From Aequorivita antarctica (GTDB lineage Bacteria; Bacteroidota; Bacteroidia; Flavobacteriales; Flavobacteriaceae): DNA of 64,000 nucleotides. Under the pieces are notes generated by a model. The model had not been told where the DNA came from, made no database searches, and saw nothing but the letters and a program-made list of their open reading frames with translations. The position numbers and the translations under genes are program-made. Where the stretch lies: positions 124,001 to 188,000 of the forward strand of contig NZ_VORT01000008.1 in the NCBI RefSeq assembly GCF_007997155.1. The letters are read 5' to 3'. The first letter of the stretch is position 1; each line of letters begins with the position of its first letter. Positions 18,842 through 27,307 of the stretch are shown piece by piece.

Positions 18842-20680
18842 ATGGCTCGTCCCCAACTAAAATCCATCTCCGAAAAAGAAAAGAAAACCAGCGTCAAGGA
18901 TTCTTTTAAAGCCCTAAAAACCATCCCACGTTTTTTTAGGGAAATATATCGCAGCAGTCCAAAACTGTTTTTGCTGAATACCTTTGCCAGGCTTATAAAC
19001 GCCTTCACCCCCGTAGTAATCCTTTGGGTGGGAAAAATGATTATTGACGAAATAATCCTGCAGGTTTCTTTACCGGACAAAGATTTCACCCAACTGTGGA
19101 ACTATGTCATCATTGAATTCTCCGTTGCCGTACTTTCAGATTTATTGGGAAGATTGATAAACCTAACCGATGGTCTATTGGGCGATTTATATTCCAATAT
19201 GTCTTCGGAAAAAATAATCCGCAAAACCGCCGAGCTCACCATTGCCCAACTGGAAGACCCAGAGTTTTACGACAAACTGGAACGCGCCCGAACCCAAACC
19301 AACAGTCGGGTAGATTTAATGACCAATGCGCTGGGACAGGCTGAAAGTCTGATTTCAATGGTTTCGCTGATTGCGGGGTTGGTTTATTTTGAACCTATTT
19401 TGATATTGATACTTATTCTCAGTATTATTCCATCGTTTATAAACGAAGCCAAGTTTAGCAGCACCCGCTATTCGTTGGCGCGAAGTTGGACCGCCGAACG
19501 CCGCGAACTGGATTACCTCCGTTTCATAGGCGCCAACAACCAAACCGCCAAGGAAATAAAACTCTTCGGCCTGACAGATTTTATCGCGGAGCGCTTTAAA
19601 GGCCTTTCAAATGACTATTACCTCATCAACAAAAAACTCTCGCTCAAGCAAAGTTTTTACGGTTCGCTCTTCAACATTTTGGGTGTACTAAGTTATTACG
19701 GCGCCTATGTGTATATTATTCTACGGGTGCTTACGGGCGTGATTACCATTGGGGAACTCACCTTCCTTTCCGGTTCCTTCAACCGTTTGCGCAACAACCT
19801 GCAAGGTTTCTTTTCGCGCTTTACCCGTATTTCCGAAAGTGCGCTGTATCTGCAGGATTATTTTGACTTTATCGATTTAACTGTGGAGCAAAATGCCGAA
19901 GCAAAAACGCCCATGCCCAAAACTATTAAAGAAGGTTTTCAAGTAAACAACCTTCACTTCGCCTACGCCGGCAGCGAAACCGAAGTGCTGAAAGGCGTAA
20001 CCTTCACGCTAAAGGCAGGTGAAAAAATGGCTTTCGTGGGCCAAAATGGTGCAGGAAAGACCACATTAATAAAACTCTTCCTCCGCTTTTACGAACCCAC
20101 CCAGGGCGAAATCCTTTTGGACGGCATCAACATCAATAAATTTGATGTGGACGCCTACCGAAAACGTTTTGGAGTAATCTTTCAGGACTTTTTTAAATAT
20201 GAATTCACCCTGCGCGAAAACATAGCCGTGGGCAACATAGACCAAGTACAAAACGATGAAGTAATAAACTACGCCGCCAGTAAAAGCCTTGCGGAACAAG
20301 TGGTGACCGAAATGGCAGATGGCCTGGAACAACGCCTAGGCAGACGTTTTTATAAAGGCACCGAATTAAGCGGCGGACAGTGGCAAAAAGTGGCGCTCGC
20401 CCGCGCCTATATGAAGGACGCCGATGTTATGGTGCTGGACGAACCCACCAGCGCACTGGATGCCCAAGCAGAGTTTGATGTTTTTGAACGCTTTATAGCC
20501 CTCACTAAAGGCAAGACCAGCATTATTATTAGCCACCGCTTTAGCACCGTGCGGATGGCAGACCGTATTTTGGTATTGCAACACGGCCAAGTGCTGGAGC
20601 TGGGCACCCACGAAGAGTTAATGGCACACCCAAAATTGTACTCGGAGTTGTTTAAGTTGCAGGCGGCGGGGTATCAGTAA
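18842..20680 (+). CDS. ABC exporter, fused permease and ATPase
   Basis: A 612-residue half-transporter. The membrane domain (about 35-340) has six helices. The ATPase domain has Walker A GQNGAGKTT near 400, the Q-loop FQDFFKYEFT, the signature LSGGQ near 509, Walker B VMVLDEPTSALD near 530 and a late ISHRFSTVRMADRI histidine switch. It should work as a homodimer exporting a lipid, peptide or drug. It stands alone, so the substrate cannot be deduced. Confidence 0.9.
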   Translation: MARPQLKSISEKEKKTSVKDSFKALKTIPRFFREIYRSSPKLFLLNTFARLINAFTPVVILWVGKMIIDEIILQVSLPDKDFTQLWNYVIIEFSVAVLSDLLGRLINLTDGLLGDLYSNMSSEKIIRKTAELTIAQLEDPEFYDKLERARTQTNSRVDLMTNALGQAESLISMVSLIAGLVYFEPILILILILSIIPSFINEAKFSSTRYSLARSWTAERRELDYLRFIGANNQTAKEIKLFGLTDFIAERFKGLSNDYYLINKKLSLKQSFYGSLFNILGVLSYYGAYVYIILRVLTGVITIGELTFLSGSFNRLRNNLQGFFSRFTRISESALYLQDYFDFIDLTVEQNAEAKTPMPKTIKEGFQVNNLHFAYAGSETEVLKGVTFTLKAGEKMAFVGQNGAGKTTLIKLFLRFYEPTQGEILLDGININKFDVDAYRKRFGVIFQDFFKYEFTLRENIAVGNIDQVQNDEVINYAASKSLAEQVVTEMADGLEQRLGRRFYKGTELSGGQWQKVALARAYMKDADVMVLDEPTSALDAQAEFDVFERFIALTKGKTSIIISHRFSTVRMADRILVLQHGQVLELGTHEELMAHPKLYSELFKLQAAGYQ

Positions 20681-20766: not shown

Positions 20767-21267
20767 ATGATTAGAACCAACAATGTATCGCCCTATCTTA
20801 AAAATAAGAATCGTCTTTCTGATGTCCTTGCTGCCATTCAGGTAATGGCTATCTATAGATTTTATAAATTAGATTTTAAAAGTTGGTCAATGAGAATCTC
20901 TGGCAATGAGGCAAACTACGATTATTGGAAAAAAATATTTGAAGATCATCCCGAATTTTTCAGATTTAATAATTTAGAAGGAAAAGTTTCATTAGTATGG
21001 AGAAGAAGCAAGCAAAGAAGATTTCATGTCGATTTAAATAAAGAAATAACTTTAGAAGAAATTAATAAGCTATCAGAAAAAGAAGCTAAGGAAAGAATTT
21101 CAAGATCTCCTCTCAATAGTTCAGAAATACAATCTCTAATAAGTATTGCCATTGATTTGCACGGTAGGGCTTTTGAAAGTAAGAAAGATAGAAGATGGTG
21201 GATTGTACCTTTGGTAGGTTCCGTTAGCACTTTAATTGGTGTTTTATTGGGTATTCTTATAAAATAA
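20767..21267 (+). CDS. Conserved hypothetical protein with C-terminal membrane anchor
   Basis: A 166-residue protein. Residues 15-80 (RLSDVLAAIQVMAIYRFYKLDFKSW start, then a WRRSKQRRFHVDL stretch) look like a compact, possibly winged-helix domain. A linker follows, then one membrane helix at about 145-165. Homologues with this layout are widespread in bacteria but have no proven function. It sits 103 bases before a DUF6602 gene on the same strand, at the start of an accessory stretch. A role with the nuclease-like neighbour is possible but unproven. Confidence 0.6.
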   Translation: MIRTNNVSPYLKNKNRLSDVLAAIQVMAIYRFYKLDFKSWSMRISGNEANYDYWKKIFEDHPEFFRFNNLEGKVSLVWRRSKQRRFHVDLNKEITLEEINKLSEKEAKERISRSPLNSSEIQSLISIAIDLHGRAFESKKDRRWWIVPLVGSVSTLIGVLLGILIK

Positions 21268-21370: not shown

Positions 21371-22228
21371 ATGTTGAAAGAATTAAAATTTGATCAAATA
21401 GTTGAAAATATCATTGGAGAAATCAATGAAGCAAAGAGAAAAGCTAAGTCTATTCACTCTGCGGGTAACATAAAATCTTCAGGAGAAGAAGTTGAAGATC
21501 TTGTTAGGGAAAAAATAAGTATTTTTTTACCCGAAAGATATTTGGTAAAACAAGGACATATTATAAACTCAAAAGGTAAAGTAAGTAATCAATTTGATAT
21601 CATAATATTTGACCGTTTAAGCACTCCTAAATTTTTTGAATCAAAGGATAACACCGTTTTTTATCCCATAGAATCAGTTTTAGCTGTGGGAGAAATAAAA
21701 AAGACACTTAGAAAAAATGATTTGATTGATTTTGGCAAAAAAATCAAGTTTTTGAAAAAAGATATGGAAAGAACCCTTGTTCCAAATACCGCGTTTGATG
21801 GAACAGTTACAGGGGATACACTTATTTCAGATATGATTAATATACCTAAACATCGGAAATACAATAACTCATTGTTTTCCTTCATTTTTGCAATAGACAT
21901 AGAAAAACCAGATGAGCTGAATATAGATGATGAGTATAAATTTATGCCAAATGACGTTTACATCCTGAATTTTGGAATGTATTTAGCTGGGAAAATTGAG
22001 AATAAACGAATTGTTTCTCAACTCGAGGATGAAGTAGACGAAATTGAAGGCCTAATAGTTGCAAAAAAGCCCGGAGTGGTTTGCATGGCTACTATGCTGA
22101 ATCAATTAATAGCACATTTAAATGAGAGTCATATAGATCCATTTAGTATTTCCAGATATATGACTGATAAAAATATTTTTGGAATTTTAGGTGCTGAAAT
22201 AAAAGTATACGATGTACGAAACAAATAA
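21371..22228 (+). CDS. DUF6602 protein with PD-(D/E)XK-like motif
   Basis: A 285-residue soluble protein. Residues 35-115 match the DUF6602 layout: GEEVEDLVREKI, LPERYLVKQGHI, then NQFDIIIFD and ESVLAVGEIK. Asp76, Glu108 and Lys110 are placed like the D...ExK core of PD-(D/E)XK nucleases (strand, Asp, about 31 residues, Glu-x-Lys). The rest is mixed alpha/beta with no recognised domain. DUF6602 proteins occur in accessory regions. A DNA-acting or defence role is plausible, but no partner methylase or helicase is adjacent. Confidence 0.65.
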   Translation: MLKELKFDQIVENIIGEINEAKRKAKSIHSAGNIKSSGEEVEDLVREKISIFLPERYLVKQGHIINSKGKVSNQFDIIIFDRLSTPKFFESKDNTVFYPIESVLAVGEIKKTLRKNDLIDFGKKIKFLKKDMERTLVPNTAFDGTVTGDTLISDMINIPKHRKYNNSLFSFIFAIDIEKPDELNIDDEYKFMPNDVYILNFGMYLAGKIENKRIVSQLEDEVDEIEGLIVAKKPGVVCMATMLNQLIAHLNESHIDPFSISRYMTDKNIFGILGAEIKVYDVRNK

Positions 22229-22229
22229 A

Positions 22230-22445
22230 TGCCCCGCTGCCGCGCGATTGCATCGCGTGTGCCCACAACAGTAAGAATATAATGATGCTACTAAACGCCA
22301 CCCTAACGATCCATTTATAGCCCAAGATTATTAAGCACTATTGATGTTCCATTTATCCTGCTTGCAATCGTTCTTCTTGTAATAATGTATTTTAAAATCC
22401 AAAAAGAAAAGCAGAAGACACGCTAGCCCGAGCGTCCCGTTAATG
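22230..22445 (+). repeat. Duplicated intergenic module, copy A
   Basis: A hairpin (CGCGAT/ATCGCG at 22243-22257), the conserved leader GTGCCCACAACAGTAAG, a degraded copy of a small membrane-peptide gene and a trailing CGCTAGCCCGAGCGTCCCG. It aligns along its length with copy B at 22841-23037. Confidence 0.8.
22282..22426 (+). pseudogene. Frameshifted copy of the 48-residue membrane-peptide gene
   Basis: It aligns base for base with the intact gene at 22889-23035 but lacks two single bases in its first third (145 against 147 bases). From the ATG it stops after 12 codons. The downstream frame still reads LSTIDVPFILLAIVLL, so the decay seems recent or only partly damaging. It starts at the base corresponding to the intact gene's ATG and ends at the matching TAG. 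Confidence 0.7.
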
Positions 22446-22504
22446 TCTTCTAGAAAATAATTTATGGCAGAAATTAAATCTTTGTTTGAAAATTAATATC
22501 ATTA

Positions 22505-22837
22505 ATGAGTGTAAATAAAAAATATTTTTTCCATATCATATTATTCTCAATTCTAGGAATTGCTATTCTTATAGGAATGATTCAGAAATATAATATTGAG
22601 AAAGATATAGGTGAAAATAGCTATACAGTTATAGCTAAAATTGAAGAAATAGTTAATAAAAGGAGCTTGAGGCGTGTTTATTATTCCTATGAATATAATG
22701 GTGTTAATTTTAAATCAACTGAATTAATTGATTCTGGAGTAAATATTCATATTGATGAATATTATGAAGCTAAAATTTCAACCCTGAATCCATCGAATTC
22801 AAAAATTAATTTAAATGAAAAATTAGTTGATAAATAA
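22505..22837 (+). CDS. Small membrane-anchored protein, DUF3592-like
   Basis: A 110-residue protein with one N-terminal membrane helix (about 8-26) and a beta-rich domain with RVYYSYEYNGVNFKS, as in DUF3592-type proteins. The function is unknown. It lies exactly between the two copies of the duplicated module, so it may be cargo of whatever duplicated them. Its bases are markedly AT-rich compared with the GC-rich hairpins on either side. Confidence 0.55.
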   Translation: MSVNKKYFFHIILFSILGIAILIGMIQKYNIEKDIGENSYTVIAKIEEIVNKRSLRRVYYSYEYNGVNFKSTELIDSGVNIHIDEYYEAKISTLNPSNSKINLNEKLVDK

Positions 22838-22840
22838 TTT

Positions 22841-23037
22841 CCCAGCTAGCGCGAGCGTCCCGCTCGTGCCCGCAACAGTAAGAAAATAATGATAATACTA
22901 AAATCCATACCCGACGGTCCATTTATAGACCCAAGATTTTTAAGCACTATTGATGTTCCATTTATCCTGCTTGCAATCGTTCTTCTTATTGTAATGTATT
23001 TTAAAGTTAAAAAAGCAAAGCAGAAGCCCCGCTAGCG
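22841..23037 (+). repeat. Duplicated intergenic module, copy B
   Basis: GCTAGCGCGAGCGTCCCGCT hairpin, GTGCCCGCAACAGTAAG leader, then an intact 48-codon gene ending in a further CGCTAGC. It is highly similar by eye to copy A over about 190 bases. Confidence 0.8.
22889..23035 (+). CDS. 48-residue single-pass membrane peptide
   Basis: ATG 22889 to TAG 23033-23035. The peptide has a short polar start (SIPDGPFIDPRFLST), one membrane helix (about 22-39, VPFILLAIVLLIVMYF) and a basic tail (KVKKAKQKPR). The tail predicts an N-out, C-in orientation. The identical layout in a degraded second copy 600 bases upstream, with mostly third-position or conservative differences in the helix, supports real coding. 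Family and function are not recognised. Similar short peptides act as toxins or membrane-complex subunits. Confidence 0.55.
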   Translation: MIILKSIPDGPFIDPRFLSTIDVPFILLAIVLLIVMYFKVKKAKQKPR

Positions 23038-23054
23038 TATATGTATATAAATCT

Positions 23055-23783
23055 ATGAGACTAATAACAATCATCTCCATTTTACTTTTACTATTCTCCT
23101 GCAGCCAGCGTCAAGAGAGAATACAAGTTGTTGAAAATAACAATCTAAATCAAAAACAAATAGACTCTGTGCTCGATAAATATAATTTTGAGTATGAAAG
23201 TTTAATTTTTATCGATAGCACGCAGCAAGCAATTCTTCCCATTACAACCCAAAAGCCACGTGGTGGAAGCAGATTGAGCTCTAAATCTTATGAAGCTGAG
23301 AGTTATCCACAATATTGGAATATTATATTTTATAATATTGAAACTGGGCATACCAATCTATTGACGAAATCAAAAATGCGAATCTCTAATTATCATGCGA
23401 ATCTTAGAAACTCTGGACCAATTATTTCGAAAAGTATAATTTATAAAATTTGTGATACTGATTACGATAATGATAACCAGCTGACTTATAAAGATCCAGA
23501 ACAACTTTTTATCTCTGTCATCGACGGTTCTAATTTAACAAGATTATCTCCTTTAGGTGAGCAAATAATGGATTTTCAAATAGTTCCTGATTCAGATAAG
23601 ATAATTTTTAGTACTCAAAGAGACACAAACGAAGATTTGGAATTTGACAAAAAAGATGAATTAATTTGGTACTTAATAGACCTCTCTAAAGAATCCAAGC
23701 CAATCGAAATCATAAATAAAACCGAAAGGAAAGAAATCGAGAATCTATATTTTAAACAATGGTTAGTAAAGAACAAAAAGTAA
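23055..23783 (+). CDS. Lipoprotein with two EF-hand-like loops, TolB-propeller-like
   Basis: A 242-residue protein with a lipobox at LLFSC16. Residues 85-235 have strand pairs such as LFISVIDGSNLTRLSP and VPDSDKIIFSTQRD, typical of TolB/WD40-like propeller blades. Two 12-residue loops fit the EF-hand spacing: 136-147 (DYDNDNQLTYKD) and 190-201 (DTNEDLEFDKKD), each with acids at positions 1, 5 and 12 and Asp or Asn at position 3. This suggests calcium binding at the outer membrane or periplasm. It lies within the accessory stretch. Confidence 0.6.
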   Translation: MRLITIISILLLLFSCSQRQERIQVVENNNLNQKQIDSVLDKYNFEYESLIFIDSTQQAILPITTQKPRGGSRLSSKSYEAESYPQYWNIIFYNIETGHTNLLTKSKMRISNYHANLRNSGPIISKSIIYKICDTDYDNDNQLTYKDPEQLFISVIDGSNLTRLSPLGEQIMDFQIVPDSDKIIFSTQRDTNEDLEFDKKDELIWYLIDLSKESKPIEIINKTERKEIENLYFKQWLVKNKK

Positions 23784-23891
23784 CAGTTTTAGCCATATCC
23801 CCAGCTAAAACAAATAAATAATTCTTTATCTATCAATAATTACCTCAAACCAATATATTTGTTTAGATGTATAAATTAGCATTTAAATAAA

Positions 23892-24611
23892 ATGAATCAC
23901 TTTCAGACTGTTGCGGTTTTTACCTATCCCACTGATTTATTTGTTGCAAAATCATTTCTGGAATCCCACGAAATTGAATGTTTCGTTAGGGATGAAATGA
24001 CAATACAAGTGCATAACTTTTATTCCAATGCAATTGGAGGTATTAAATTGGAGGTAAATACAGAAGATTATGAAAAGGCGAGATGCTTATTAATACAACA
24101 TGGGTTTATTGAGGAAGAAGAAATAGCAGCCGAAAGTGAAAATAATTGGATTTTTAAATTGGATAAGATAACTTCAACGGTTCCAGTTATTAAATCGCTT
24201 AGCTTTTCAACTAGGGCGATCATATTATTCATTTTAGTATTACTATTAATAACTATTCCCGCCTATTTTCTTTCACTTCCCACAACAAAAGAACTTTTAA
24301 CAAATGCTCCGTGGTGCTTAAGCCATGTAACCTATAACGGAAAAAATTATGTTCCCACTTCCTCCCATATCCGATTTATTTTAAATAGTCAATGTGAAGA
24401 GTCAATTAATTTTAAAGAAAATGGGCTTATAGAATTACCAGGTTTTCAGAGCCAACCCATAATGGGCCAATGGCAAATGGAAGAAGACAGCTTACGGATT
24501 TTTGGTAGTGATAATTTTGAATATATTTATAACGGAAATTATAAATTAGATTTTAATGGCAGGGAATTAACAATAACTTCAGGAAATACAATTTTATATT
24601 GCTATAGATAA
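23892..24611 (+). CDS. DUF2007 domain protein with membrane segment and lipocalin-like C-terminus
   Basis: A 239-residue protein. Residues 1-75 are a DUF2007 (putative signal-transducing) domain with TYPTDLFVAKSFLESHEIECFV. A membrane helix is at about 113-131. The C-terminal 100 residues (APWCLSHVTYNGKNYVP, then GLIELPGFQSQPIMGQWQM) resemble small lipocalin-like beta barrels. The function is unknown. It is followed after 7 bases by a small zinc-ribbon gene, probably in one transcript. Confidence 0.65.
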   Translation: MNHFQTVAVFTYPTDLFVAKSFLESHEIECFVRDEMTIQVHNFYSNAIGGIKLEVNTEDYEKARCLLIQHGFIEEEEIAAESENNWIFKLDKITSTVPVIKSLSFSTRAIILFILVLLLITIPAYFLSLPTTKELLTNAPWCLSHVTYNGKNYVPTSSHIRFILNSQCEESINFKENGLIELPGFQSQPIMGQWQMEEDSLRIFGSDNFEYIYNGNYKLDFNGRELTITSGNTILYCYR

Positions 24612-24618
24612 TTTATGG

Positions 24619-24810
24619 ATGAGAAAAGACTTTAAAATAGCTTGCCCACACTGCAAAAGCTCGGAAGTATCAAAACCGAAGTACTCAATGAAAAGCTTTG
24701 CAATCTCAGTATTGCTTCTTGGTTTTCCATTACTCTTTATAAAAAAAATGTATCACTGTTTCGATTGTTTATCCGACTTTACGAAATCCGACATACAGAA
24801 ATCCAGCTAA
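24619..24810 (+). CDS. Small zinc-ribbon membrane protein
   Basis: A 63-residue protein with CPHC near 9-12 and CFDC near 48-51, which would form a four-cysteine zinc site. A hydrophobic stretch (about 28-43, AISVLLLGFPLLFI) lies between the two knuckles. The membrane segment within a zinc ribbon is odd but is seen in some small TFIIB-like ribbons. It starts 7 bases after the DUF2007 gene. An alternative upstream ATG in another frame stops at once. Confidence 0.6.
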   Translation: MRKDFKIACPHCKSSEVSKPKYSMKSFAISVLLLGFPLLFIKKMYHCFDCLSDFTKSDIQKSS

Positions 24811-24814
24811 CACC

Positions 24815-24842
24815 CCGCTAGCCCAAGCGTCCCGCTCGTGCC
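24815..24842 (+). repeat. GC-rich hairpin repeat (third full copy)
   Basis: CCGCTAGCCCAAGCGTCCCG followed by CTCGTGCC matches the elements at 22421-22440 and 22844-22870. It lies directly after the zinc-ribbon gene. Confidence 0.75.
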
Positions 24843-24969: not shown

Positions 24970-25350
24970 ATGAAACTGTATAGCCTACCAAAAGTTACCT
25001 TCCTTTTTATTGCAATTAGTACCCTGTTATCGTGCAACAACGATGAAAAAAGCAACAATACAACCCCGGCCGCACAGCTTTTGGGCGTATGGCAAAGCAG
25101 CAACTTTAGCGAGATGTATGACTACAAGTTGTATTTTAATACTAAGGATGAAGGTTACAGTACCGAATACATAGCCCAGCCGGACGGCACCGCAATTTCA
25201 AACCTCAGACCCTTTAGCTGGAGCAGTAGCGAAACCACCTTGACCATAGATTATGAGGATGGCGCTAGCGATGCCACCCCCTTTGCCATAAACGCCGCCG
25301 GACAATTGCTGGCTTCGGGTTTAAGCAATTTACCCTTCAACAAGCTATAG
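24970..25350 (+). CDS. Small lipocalin-like lipoprotein
   Basis: A 126-residue protein with a lipobox at TLLSC22 and a Ser/Asn-rich linker. The LLGVWQSSNF motif followed by short antiparallel strands is typical of Bacteroidota lipocalin-like lipoproteins. It is expected in the outer membrane or periplasm. The ligand is unknown. It is the last gene of the accessory stretch. Confidence 0.6.
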   Translation: MKLYSLPKVTFLFIAISTLLSCNNDEKSNNTTPAAQLLGVWQSSNFSEMYDYKLYFNTKDEGYSTEYIAQPDGTAISNLRPFSWSSSETTLTIDYEDGASDATPFAINAAGQLLASGLSNLPFNKL

Positions 25351-25468
25351 TGTTTTCTGCTTTACTGGTTTATTGGTGTTAGCGCTGTTCCTCTGTTACA
25401 AAACTCTTAAATCATCTTCAAAAAAATCTAATTAATGTAACTTGCCGACCTATTAAAAAGTGAAGATT

Positions 25469-27307
25469 ATGCAAGACACAAAAATGCTAGATTACATAAA
25501 AGAAGTTTTAGAAAATATACCAGCTACATGGTTAAAGCTAACCACACATCGGCTGGATATTTATGATGAAAGCCAAGCAAAAACACAGTTTCTAGACCAG
25601 TTTGAAACCCTATTCCACGCCAACAACGCCGAACCGGCAGCCCTAAAAAAACTACCCACGGCTTATGACTATATTCGCTTGGGCCATCCACTATCCTGTA
25701 TATTGGAATGGGGAATTGCCAACTTAAATAATCTAGCAGCGGAGAATGTAATAACTTTTTCCTCAAAGACGGTTCCCATGCTGGCAATCCTTCGGAAGAA
25801 TTTATTGGCTAATAAAAAAACCCAAATTCTTTATACCGATGAATTACCTTCCTTTTTTGATGCTGAAATCGTAAGAAACATCTATGGCTACAATTTTGAA
25901 CTAAAGAAAGTAGAACAAGGTGCAGCCATTCCAGAATTTAATGGTAGCACGCTCTTCATTTCACAGAAAGAGAAAATTGGCGCTGTTGCCCTCACCCCAA
26001 CCATTGACTTTTTCCTAAGCCTTCAAGGCCACCTGGGAAGTACTTTAATAGTAAATGGCGAAAAGAACGAAGATTACATTTCAGAAATTCAACACGTACG
26101 GAGAAGGGAAACCATCGCCATGACGCCTGCCAATTGCCTAATTGCTTTAAAGTGGTTAGGGAAACAACCCTCTATTGAGCAAAATAATGAAGATGAAAAT
26201 AAACCAAGTGTATTAAATTCTATAAGGGAAATTACCGGTTCCCCAACAGAGGCACTCGTTGCTTCTAGTGGACTTTCCATTCAATACGCCATTATGATGG
26301 GGCTTATTCACGATGCGCTTGAAAACCACAAAGGAAAGGCTATCAAATTTATTGTTCCTCCAAATTGTTATGGCGGCACAAACGACCAAGCAAGACGCGT
26401 TGCTGCTTGCATTGATAATGTTGAAATTGTAGACTTGCTAGTAGATGGTGATAACGAGATGGTGCGTAGTATAGATAGCGTTTTAACTAAAATCGCTGAT
26501 GAAGATGCTATCCCTTACATCATAGCAGAAATACCAACAAATCCTAGAGTTGAAGTTCCAGATTTACAACAATTAAAAGCTGTATTAAGTAAAGAACGTA
26601 AAACCGCAGCAGGTGAAATTGCTATCGACCCTGTTTTTATTCTGGATCAAACATTTTGTCCGAATTATCACTTCTTGGGCGATGGGGAAATACTTTCAAC
26701 GGTTCGAGCCATTTCGTATGCTAGTGGATCAAAATTTCCGAGTGGCGGAAAATGCACGGCTGGTTACGTGGTAGGAAATACAAAAACGAAGGATTTGATG
26801 GAAAAAATAGAGCTGCATCTAACCCTTTGCGATAACGAGGCTACAGCCCTTCAATATGAAATCTTAGCAAAGCAATTGCCTTCCATGAACCAACGGATTA
26901 TTGATGCTTATGACAATACCCGTGAGTTTGTAAACTTCATCCACGAAACCTTACCAGGAGCGAAAATCAATTTTGTTTCAGAAGATTTGGCAGACCAAGG
27001 ATTTACCCCTTCTGTATTTTCATTAGATCTTCCCACTAAAGGGAATACGAATGAAGAAAGAGAAGCGTATAAAAGGGCACTAAATCTTAAATTAATCAAT
27101 TTAATGATTAAAGAAATCCCTACAGAAAGTAAGTTCTGTGTGAGCTACGGGCAGTTAAAAGGATGTTATTGGACGATACCTGCAACCTCAACTCAGGGAA
27201 CCACTAAAGAAGGCGATAAAGATTATATTGTACGCGTATCACTTTCACCTAATCTTGATCTTGATCTTCATAAAAAAGTGTTTTTAAAATTTGTGGAACA
27301 GATCTAG
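25469..27307 (+). CDS. Large PLP-dependent enzyme, Cys/Met-metabolism fold type I
   Basis: A 612-residue protein, started at ATG 25469. An in-frame GTG 9 bases upstream is possible. Residues 245-600 follow the fold type I aminotransferase pattern: SGLSIQYAIMMG, an EIPTNPRVEVPDL segment, DQTFCPNYHF, and the probable Schiff-base lysine Lys422 in SGSKFPSGGKCTAG. This resembles cystathionine gamma-synthase relatives, but about 180 residues at the N-terminus are extra and unassigned. The substrate is unknown. A DUF3095 gene follows after 53 bases and may be co-transcribed. Confidence 0.72.
   Translation: MQDTKMLDYIKEVLENIPATWLKLTTHRLDIYDESQAKTQFLDQFETLFHANNAEPAALKKLPTAYDYIRLGHPLSCILEWGIANLNNLAAENVITFSSKTVPMLAILRKNLLANKKTQILYTDELPSFFDAEIVRNIYGYNFELKKVEQGAAIPEFNGSTLFISQKEKIGAVALTPTIDFFLSLQGHLGSTLIVNGEKNEDYISEIQHVRRRETIAMTPANCLIALKWLGKQPSIEQNNEDENKPSVLNSIREITGSPTEALVASSGLSIQYAIMMGLIHDALENHKGKAIKFIVPPNCYGGTNDQARRVAACIDNVEIVDLLVDGDNEMVRSIDSVLTKIADEDAIPYIIAEIPTNPRVEVPDLQQLKAVLSKERKTAAGEIAIDPVFILDQTFCPNYHFLGDGEILSTVRAISYASGSKFPSGGKCTAGYVVGNTKTKDLMEKIELHLTLCDNEATALQYEILAKQLPSMNQRIIDAYDNTREFVNFIHETLPGAKINFVSEDLADQGFTPSVFSLDLPTKGNTNEEREAYKRALNLKLINLMIKEIPTESKFCVSYGQLKGCYWTIPATSTQGTTKEGDKDYIVRVSLSPNLDLDLHKKVFLKFVEQI

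What the first reader, a model, noticed from the sequence alone, without database searches (positions are those of the whole stretch)
22230..23037. A 200-bp module duplicated around a small membrane-protein gene
Seen directly: copy A (22230-22445) and copy B (22841-23037) share the hairpin, the GTGCCC(A/G)CAACAGTAAG leader and the following small reading frame, with few differences. They flank the DUF3592-like gene at 22505-22837. The shared GC-rich ends on AT-rich cargo look like a cassette or mobile unit without a transposase. Inference: cargo capture or local duplication by a non-autonomous element.
Basis: partly seen in the sequence, partly recalled or inferred. Interest (0 to 1): 0.7.

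Follow-up and report, generated by a model that had tools for sequence, protein, structure and literature searches.

The report
REP hairpins capping swapped defence genes
The "duplicated module" is two different small DNA hairpins of a known repeat type, each in front of an old copy of a tiny gene, inside a spot of the chromosome where related marine bacteria hold different anti-virus genes, many of whose ends carry such hairpins.

Summary
The duplication is real: 22259-22427 and 22866-23036 agree at 150 of 168 aligned bases. The hairpins, however, differ: stem CGCGCGAT-TGC-ATCGCGTG in copy A, CGCGAGCG-TCC-CGCTCGTG in B, a third in Aequorivita aquimaris. They are REP-type repeats; in relatives the stem type goes with the clade of a flanking small Y1_Tnp transposase (RAYT/TnpAREP), which this genome lacks. 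Close copies of the small ORF (mp48) were found only here and in two relatives, always at this locus, and copy A groups with the A. aquimaris copy rather than with B (8 against 2 sites). So it is neither a recent local duplication nor a travelling cassette. The locus, between an ABC-transporter gene and a lipocalin/PLP-enzyme pair, is a turnover spot: Septu, a type II restriction enzyme, a NucC-like nuclease or a toxin-antitoxin pair lies there in different species. REPs tend to follow stop codons in the gene's orientation, and the same REP-plus-downstream sequence can meet unrelated upstream genes. I read this as REPs carried at the 3' ends of accessory modules exchanged by recombination. Active RAYT cassette movement is possible but unproven.

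The parts
18842..20680 (+). ABC transporter gene, conserved left anchor of the variable locus
   Evidence: Pfam ABC_tran 1e-34; syntenic in relatives
20767..21267 (+). 166-aa protein, first gene of the local accessory module
   Evidence: ORF, no Pfam match
21371..22228 (+). DUF6602 protein, PD-(D/E)xK/NucC-like nuclease; stop codon 3 nt before the hairpin's CCCC
   Evidence: Pfam DUF6602 3.9e-24; PADLOC PD_DExK 5.7e-28, NucC 3.8e-21
22232..22259 (+). REP hairpin, stem type II (copy A): CCCCGCTGC + CGCGCGAT-TGC-ATCGCGTG
   Evidence: exact core match; DNA fold -8.3 kcal/mol, 14 of 200 shuffles as good
22260..22275 (+). REP tail ('leader') of copy A
   Evidence: similar tail behind other REPs
22282..22427 (+). 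mp48 copy A, frame broken
   Evidence: alignment with copy B and A. aquimaris
22418..22447 (+). decayed type I REP at the end of copy A
   Evidence: 73% to the reference copy
22505..22837 (+). 110-aa membrane-type protein (mp110) between the copies
   Evidence: ORF; no Pfam match at E<=10
22841..22868 (+). REP hairpin, stem type I (copy B): CCCAGCTAG + CGCGAGCG-TCC-CGCTCGTG
   Evidence: DNA fold -10.6 kcal/mol, 0 of 200 shuffles as good
22869..22884 (+). REP tail ('leader') of copy B
22889..23035 (+). mp48 copy B, intact 48-aa membrane-type protein
   Evidence: dN 0.13, dS 0.63 against A. aquimaris; its stop codon TAG lies in the next REP fragment
23027..23037 (+). left 11 nt of a REP (CCCCGCTAGCG) at the end of mp48 copy B
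   Evidence: sequence
23055..23783 (+). 242-aa lipoprotein-like cargo, also at this locus in G013
   Evidence: 83% DNA identity
23892..24611 (+). 239-aa DUF2007-like cargo
   Evidence: Pfam DUF2007 4.2e-05, below the curated cut-off
24619..24810 (+). 63-aa zinc-ribbon-like cargo
   Evidence: weak Pfam matches below cut-off
24813..24840 (+). third REP, type I with stem changes, in front of the lipocalin gene
   Evidence: folds poorly (-3.9 kcal/mol, 40 of 200 shuffles as good)
24970..25350 (+). lipocalin-like lipoprotein gene, conserved right anchor
   Evidence: Pfam Lipocalin_4 1.2e-04
25460..27307 (+). PLP-dependent enzyme gene, conserved right anchor
   Evidence: 24 of 28 genus genomes; Pfam Cys_Met_Meta_PP 2.8e-08

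Best explanation
The hairpins are REP-type repeats that belong to Bacteroidota RAYT (TnpAREP) transposases, here left over without their enzyme. They lie at the 3' ends of accessory modules in a variable, defence-rich locus between an ABC-transporter gene and a lipocalin/PLP-enzyme pair. Shown: the stem type goes with the RAYT clade; REPs tend to follow stop codons in the same orientation; the same REP-plus-downstream sequence meets unrelated upstream genes in different species, joined within a few bases of the REP. Inferred: RAYTs once placed REPs behind these genes; modules with their 3' REP are then exchanged by ordinary recombination between conserved flanks and between REPs; and the two mp48 copies are old paralogues brought side by side by this turnover, with mp110 between them. 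A REP this close to a stop codon may also damp translation or protect the mRNA, as reported for E. coli REPs.
For: RAYT link: of 15 RAYT loci examined (of 55 Y1_Tnp rows), 14 have a REP within 300 bp, and all 14 include their own clade's stem type. Orientation: of 88 REPs of types I-III away from RAYTs, 71 have a same-strand upstream gene (null 45.9, sd 4.5) and 29 lie within 25 bp of its stop (null 8.2, sd 2.7); 1 lies within 25 bp of an opposite-strand gene (null 8.6, sd 2.7). Exchange: REP+mp48 has three unrelated abutting upstream ORFs (285, 110, 70 aa; 3 of 4 mp48 copies) and REP+lipocalin three (63, 119, 205 aa; 3 of the 4 genomes shown with a REP there), each stop 0-3 nt before the REP's C-rich foot. 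G009 and G016 share an identical 131-aa gene downstream, but upstream have Septu plus a type I REP, or a restriction-enzyme gene and a 287-aa gene plus a decayed type III REP. Cargo: of 23 REP-preceding genes scanned in both libraries (of 43 listed), 11 have a defence/TA/toxin domain; control 2 of 20 (Fisher p=0.009). mp48: 8 sites group A with A. aquimaris, 2 group A with B, 0 the third way.
Against: The loci were fetched because they hold REPs, so hot-spot and cargo figures are biased. Stem types and RAYT clades were in part defined on the same loci that I then tabulated. The 23 scanned genes were chosen by me; five more, scanned in one library only, gave no defence match. Homology often breaks in intergenic DNA anyway, and I had no matched set of REP-free junctions. 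Genes were called by a longest-ORF rule. At the lipocalin junction G027 has a decayed REP with no abutting ORF, at mp48 the A. capsosiphonis copy has only a decayed REP, and near a uvrB-like gene the pattern is unclean. Some exchanges cut inside genes (G013 zinc-ribbon fragment), so REPs are not the only boundary. Only copy B's hairpin folds clearly better than shuffles. Translation damping is taken from E. coli work, not tested here.
Confidence: 0.6

Rival explanations
1. RAYT-driven cassette system: the REP is the recombination end of a module, and TnpAREP in trans excises and inserts module+REP as single strands, much as an integron integrase uses attC hairpins.
For: A 683-bp block (REP, antitoxin, YoeB, REP and about 55 bp more) in this genome is absent from G020, whose flanks overlap by 2 bp. 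Stem type can change together with the upstream gene while downstream sequence stays (mp48 set; G009/G016). Clade 1 RAYT genes sit as REP-flanked units of similar size. TnpAREP cleaves and rejoins single strands beside REPs in vitro (PMC8266576, passages).
Against: In the fetched loci no non-RAYT cargo was found at two different loci at DNA level (the apparent mp48 and lipocalin cases proved to be one locus). No RAYT found in this genome. Only one clean presence/absence case, and its polarity (gain or loss) is inferred.
Confidence: 0.13
2. Recent local tandem duplication of a hairpin+ORF module in this lineage.
For: 89% identity of the two copies, about 600 bp apart, nowhere else in the genome.
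Against: Different hairpin stems; copy A groups with the A. aquimaris copy at 8 sites, with B at 2; A-B identity (133/151) is like A-A. aquimaris identity (131/151).
Confidence: 0.12
3. REPs are selected 3'-end RNA elements only (translation damping or mRNA protection of costly or toxic genes); placement reflects selection, not exchange.
For: Strong orientation and distance bias; PMC12306157 passages report, citing earlier work, that REPs within 15 nt of a stop codon reduce translation in E. coli; 11 of 23 scanned neighbours have defence/TA/toxin domains.
Against: Does not explain different REP stem types and unrelated upstream genes joined to the same downstream sequence.
Confidence: 0.13
4. 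Integron gene cassettes with attC sites.
For: Array of small ORFs, several followed by a hairpin.
Against: The hairpins go with Y1_Tnp RAYTs; no integron core motifs recognised in them (by eye, from memory). An integrase gene was not searched for.
Confidence: 0.02

Closest known systems
REP / REPtron of TnpAREP subclass 2.6 (Bertels RAYT group 5), Bacteroidetes (PMC6006769, passages)
   Same: Small Y1_Tnp proteins flanked by hairpins without the GTAG foot, copies of which occur elsewhere in the genome.
   Different: Here four stem types go with four RAYT clades; the published residue motifs agree only in part; REPs persist in a genome with no RAYT found; many lie behind accessory defence/TA genes.
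GTAG REPs of Proteobacteria (PMC3733652, passages)
   Same: Hairpin close to the 3' end of the upstream ORF; the REP can supply the TAG stop codon.
   Different: No GTAG foot; at most ten copies per genome in each pattern search; that paper says the abundant GTAG families of S. maltophilia and P. syringae are restricted to core genome regions, whereas the loci seen here are variable.
Integron gene cassettes (recalled)
   Same: In outline alike: small genes with a hairpin at the 3' end, differing between strains.
   Different: No integron hallmarks recognised by eye; the associated enzyme family is a Y1 transposase; no cargo found at a second locus in the fetched set.
Defence hot spots between conserved genes (for example in Pseudomonas aeruginosa, PMC10250203; search listing only)
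   Same: Unrelated defence systems occupy one place between conserved genes.
   Different: Here short RAYT-type hairpins lie at the 3' ends of several of the modules.

Membership tests
REPs of RAYT/TnpAREP (broad sense) | Short imperfect palindrome, repeated, mostly intergenic | tested here: met
   18 of 28 genus genomes hold the type I core at <=2 mismatches, 0 for the reversed pattern; 25 of 28 hold a type II-IV core at <=1 mismatch, 0 reversed
REPs of RAYT/TnpAREP (broad sense) | Same hairpin flanks a RAYT gene | tested here: met
   In relatives: 14 of 15 examined RAYT loci have a REP within 300 bp, all 14 with the clade's own type; the other 40 Y1_Tnp rows were not tabulated
REPs of RAYT/TnpAREP (broad sense) | Cognate RAYT in the same genome | tested here: not met
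   0 matches in the window's genome with PF01797 and with the RAYT profile; met in relatives
Canonical GTAG REP | GTAG/GTGG tetranucleotide at the 5' foot | tested here: not met
   Foot reads GCTAG or a variant
TnpAREP subclass 2.6 | Motifs NH[LIV]H, WQ, YIH[QN]NP; about 179 aa (from PMC6006769) | tested here: inconclusive
   Alignment A2 of 13 proteins: clades 1 and 3 have SH[IL]H, WQ, YIHNNP; clade 2 NHVH, WR, Y[VI]HNNP; clade 4 SHLH, WK, YIHYNP; 184-190 aa
TnpAREP subclass 2.6 | Flanked by atypical hairpins lacking GT[AG]G, copies elsewhere in the genome | tested here: met
Composite/cargo-carrying mobile element | Same cargo between the same ends at two or more loci | tested here: not met
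   In the fetched loci, matches near REPs in non-syntenic pairs were RAYTs and REP-adjacent repeats, plus pairs that proved to be one locus; whole genomes were not compared
Composite/cargo-carrying mobile element | Excision or transposition observed | not testable with these tools
   Needs an experiment
Integron cassette array | IntI integrase and attC core sites | not tested
   No integrase search was made

The most novel reading that the evidence does not exclude
In Aequorivita, RAYT hairpins act as attC-like ends: accessory defence and toxin-antitoxin modules carry a REP at the 3' end, and the single-strand transposase, acting in trans, joins a module plus REP to the next segment at the hairpin edge, building exchangeable defence arrays without an integron integrase.
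Probability: 0.12. Interest if true: 0.9.

Novelty: new variant of a known kind. Interest (0 to 1): 0.5.

Why it matters
RAYTs are described as domesticated transposases (PMC8266576, abstract), and in two well-studied species their abundant REPs keep to core genome regions (PMC3733652, passages). REPs that instead sit behind exchanged defence modules would give a simple sequence tag for finding new defence genes in Bacteroidota, and a test case for whether these single-strand transposases, or REP-REP recombination, help shuffle immunity genes.

Tried and rejected
mp48 as a mobile cassette: one search placed a copy on another contig of G025, and I took it for a second locus until one search found the ABC gene beside it; it is the same locus, so the idea was dropped. 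Lipocalin gene moved in G018: rejected, the ABC gene is on the same contig. Terminator: no + strand terminator-like site at the hairpins; two of the - strand sites overlap REP pieces at 23014-23033 and 24805-24823. Plasmid or phage origin of the module: no match. 'Leader' as a separate conserved element: it is mostly the REP tail. DUF3592: no Pfam match. Two results were not used as statistics: homology ends cluster near REPs, but intergenic DNA gives such ends anyway; downstream-only against upstream-only similarity around REPs (163 against 57 cross-genome pairs) is inflated by RAYT elements and REP doublets. One Y1_Tnp protein drawn (L115, 186 aa) looked unlike the others and was left out of the clade table. 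Own-genome REPs were counted by pattern only, so strongly decayed ones may be missed. In one search only 10 candidates per genome were scored, so weak copies may be missed there too. G165 (E 0.006) I set aside as chance.

Full report
What is there. The stretches 22259-22427 and 22866-23036 align with 150 of 168 bases identical; 2000 random pieces of the window reach at most 16 against a score of 104 for the pair. A whole-genome search with copy A finds only the two copies. The hairpins in front differ: CGCGCGAT-TGC-ATCGCGTG in A (22241-22259) and CGCGAGCG-TCC-CGCTCGTG in B (22850-22868). A. aquimaris (G017, named through) has CGCACGTT-TGC-AACGTGTG in the same place. Types II and III differ by two paired changes, so the stem is kept while the letters change. 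DNA folding gives -8.3, -10.6 and -5.8 kcal/mol for A, B and G017, but only B is clearly better than shuffles (0 of 200 as good; A 14, G017 53), and the REP at 24813 folds poorly (-3.9; 40 of 200).

What the hairpins are. A structural search of the window finds the hairpins of A and B and nothing else at its stricter setting; 20 shuffled windows gave 0 or 1 each. A looser search gave 95 hits in the fetched loci against 2 in the reversed control; the loci were chosen for REPs, some overlap, and a few hits are plainly not REPs. The type I core occurs at up to 2 mismatches in 18 of 28 genus genomes, cores of types II-IV in 25 of 28 at up to 1 mismatch; the reversed patterns gave none. Small Y1_Tnp proteins lie between or beside such hairpins in relatives. 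One search lists 55 Y1_Tnp rows; I examined 15 RAYT-like ones. Of these, 14 have a REP within 300 bp, and in all 14 the type that goes with the protein clade is present (counting a variant, Ib, as type I); two of the 14 also have one hit of another type, and one locus (L079) has none at that distance. Types and clades were in part defined on these loci. One protein of each clade matches Pfam Y1_Tnp above its cut-off. The window's genome gave no RAYT by family search or by a profile of 13 RAYTs. The published subclass 2.6 of TnpAREP, found mostly in Bacteroidetes, is flanked by hairpins without GTAG (PMC6006769, passages); motif agreement is partial.

Placement. Among 88 REPs of types I-III (at most 3 mismatches, more than 1 kb from the examined RAYTs, upstream gene present), 71 follow a same-strand gene (random intergenic placement: 45.9, sd 4.5), 29 within 25 bp of its stop (8.2, sd 2.7), and 1 is within 25 bp of an opposite-strand gene (8.6, sd 2.7) (longest-ORF gene calls of at least 50 aa). 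A position next to 3' ends, and REPs that supply a TAG stop, are known for GTAG REPs (PMC3733652, passages); mp48 copy B ends in this way.

The locus. The interval from the ABC gene (18842-20680) to the lipocalin and PLP genes (24970-27307) is conserved at its ends and variable inside. Nine genomes have ABC and PLP on one fetched stretch; maps of 14 genomes are, some cut by contig ends. Contents include Septu PtuA/PtuB in G009 (1.8e-111, 1.2e-55), a type II restriction enzyme in G016 (1.1e-135) and the DUF6602/NucC-like protein here (5.7e-28 to PD_DExK), a Gp49-type toxin with a partner gene in G027 with relatives in G001 and G025, and RAYTs in G013, G004, G010 and G018.

Junctions. REP+mp48 is preceded by a 285-aa, a 110-aa and a 70-aa ORF in copy A, copy B and G017; the fourth copy, in A. 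capsosiphonis, has only a decayed REP. REP+lipocalin is preceded by 63-, 119- and 205-aa ORFs in G000, G018 and G012; in G027 the REP there is decayed and has no abutting ORF. None of the six ORFs match each other by blastp, and each stop ends 0-3 nt before the REP's C-rich foot. REP+ORF116 is preceded by 290 aa in G017 and by 322 aa in G016 and G024, with stops 15 and 11 nt before the GCT. A further set before a 665-aa gene (uvrB, name recalled from its sequence) is unclean: of six genomes, four have tiny or no upstream ORF. G009 and G016 share an identical 131-aa protein downstream, but have different defence genes upstream, one followed by a type I REP, the other (restriction enzyme, then a 287-aa gene) by a decayed type III REP. 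In this genome's contig C10 a 683-bp block (REP, antitoxin, YoeB, REP, about 55 bp more) is missing in G020, with flanks overlapping by 2 bp; tblastn finds no YoeB there. A distant YoeB (49% identity) lies 8 bp before a type II REP in G007.

Cargo. Forty-three genes end within 60 bp before a REP on the same strand (rows near RAYTs and REPs with more than 3 mismatches were dropped; G016 and G024 contribute the same two genes). I scanned 23 of the 43 with both Pfam and PADLOC; counting Pfam matches at 1e-4 and PADLOC matches at 1e-6, 11 carry defence, TA or toxin domains (DUF6602/PD-DExK, PtuB, NACHT, YoeB twice, RES, EndoU, RhuM, AbiEii, PDC-S45, PD-Lambda-5 methylase). Five others were scanned in one library only, without a defence match. 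Of 20 ORFs more than 2 kb from a REP in the same loci (drawn from 161), 2 matched, both general methyltransferases. Fisher p is 0.009, but the 23 were chosen by me with a leaning towards longer proteins, so this is a lead, not a measurement.

History of mp48. Informative sites: 8 join A with G017 against B with G025, 2 join A with B, 0 the third way. B against G017 gives dN 0.13, dS 0.63, so the intact copy seems to be kept as a protein. Longer frames with weaker similarity exist in G333 (116 aa, E 2e-7) and G205 (107 aa, E 6e-4) among 397 family genomes, so the 48-aa form may be a REP-truncated version; this is inference.

How it probably works. Shown: REP identity, RAYT correspondence in the loci examined, orientation, and different upstream genes at REP edges in several sets. 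Inferred: deposition by RAYT, then exchange by ordinary recombination. TnpAREP of E. coli and others cleaves and rejoins single-stranded DNA beside REPs, mainly at C|T (PMC8266576, passages), which makes an active role chemically plausible but does not show it. A damping effect on translation within 15 nt of the stop is reported for E. coli (PMC12306157, passages citing earlier work).

Literature. Six searches of the held library showed me 20, 15, 19, 15, 10 and 12 rows of 196, 96, 19, 253, 2726 and 2708 papers. None of the listed titles and abstract starts joins RAYT or REP sequences with exchange of defence modules, and none of the ten rows contains the word Aequorivita. The library lacks most subscription journals, so this is no proof of absence from print.

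Noticed in passing
G020, G022, G027, G025 (L138, L134, L131, L077), downstream of the ABC gene: The last 50-54 bp of the ABC gene, up to its stop codon, is repeated further downstream (behind cargo in three, after a short spacer in G020), in G022 and G027 with the other of two tail variants; this looks like insertion at the gene's 3' end with displacement of the old end.
   Followed up: partly
L068 6755-7439 (this genome, contig C10): REP-antitoxin-YoeB-REP block absent from G020 at the same place; nearby a NACHT-SNaCT5 protein also ends 13 bp before a REP.
   Followed up: partly
L093 and L094 (G007): Type II REPs share up to about 250 bp of adjoining sequence (82-91% identical) in several copies, so the type II element is longer than its hairpin.
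   Followed up: no
L150 (G333): A longer mp48 relative sits between repeats that look by eye like AACAACG...CGTTGTG inverted sites, reminiscent of integron cassettes.
   Followed up: no
window 23055-24810 against G013 (L099 1811-2711): Gene order differs: 242-aa then 63-aa gene here; in G013 a fragment of the 63-aa gene, joined to another gene's start, precedes the 242-aa gene.
   Followed up: partly
window 22806-22922 (- strand): The REP read on the other strand gives an ORF with 'HERDARAS'; such peptides in databases are probably REP artefacts (the database remark is recalled).
   Followed up: no
L175 3995-4013 (this genome, contig C64): Lone type IV core (1 mismatch), about 140 bp behind a 213-aa gene.
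   Followed up: no
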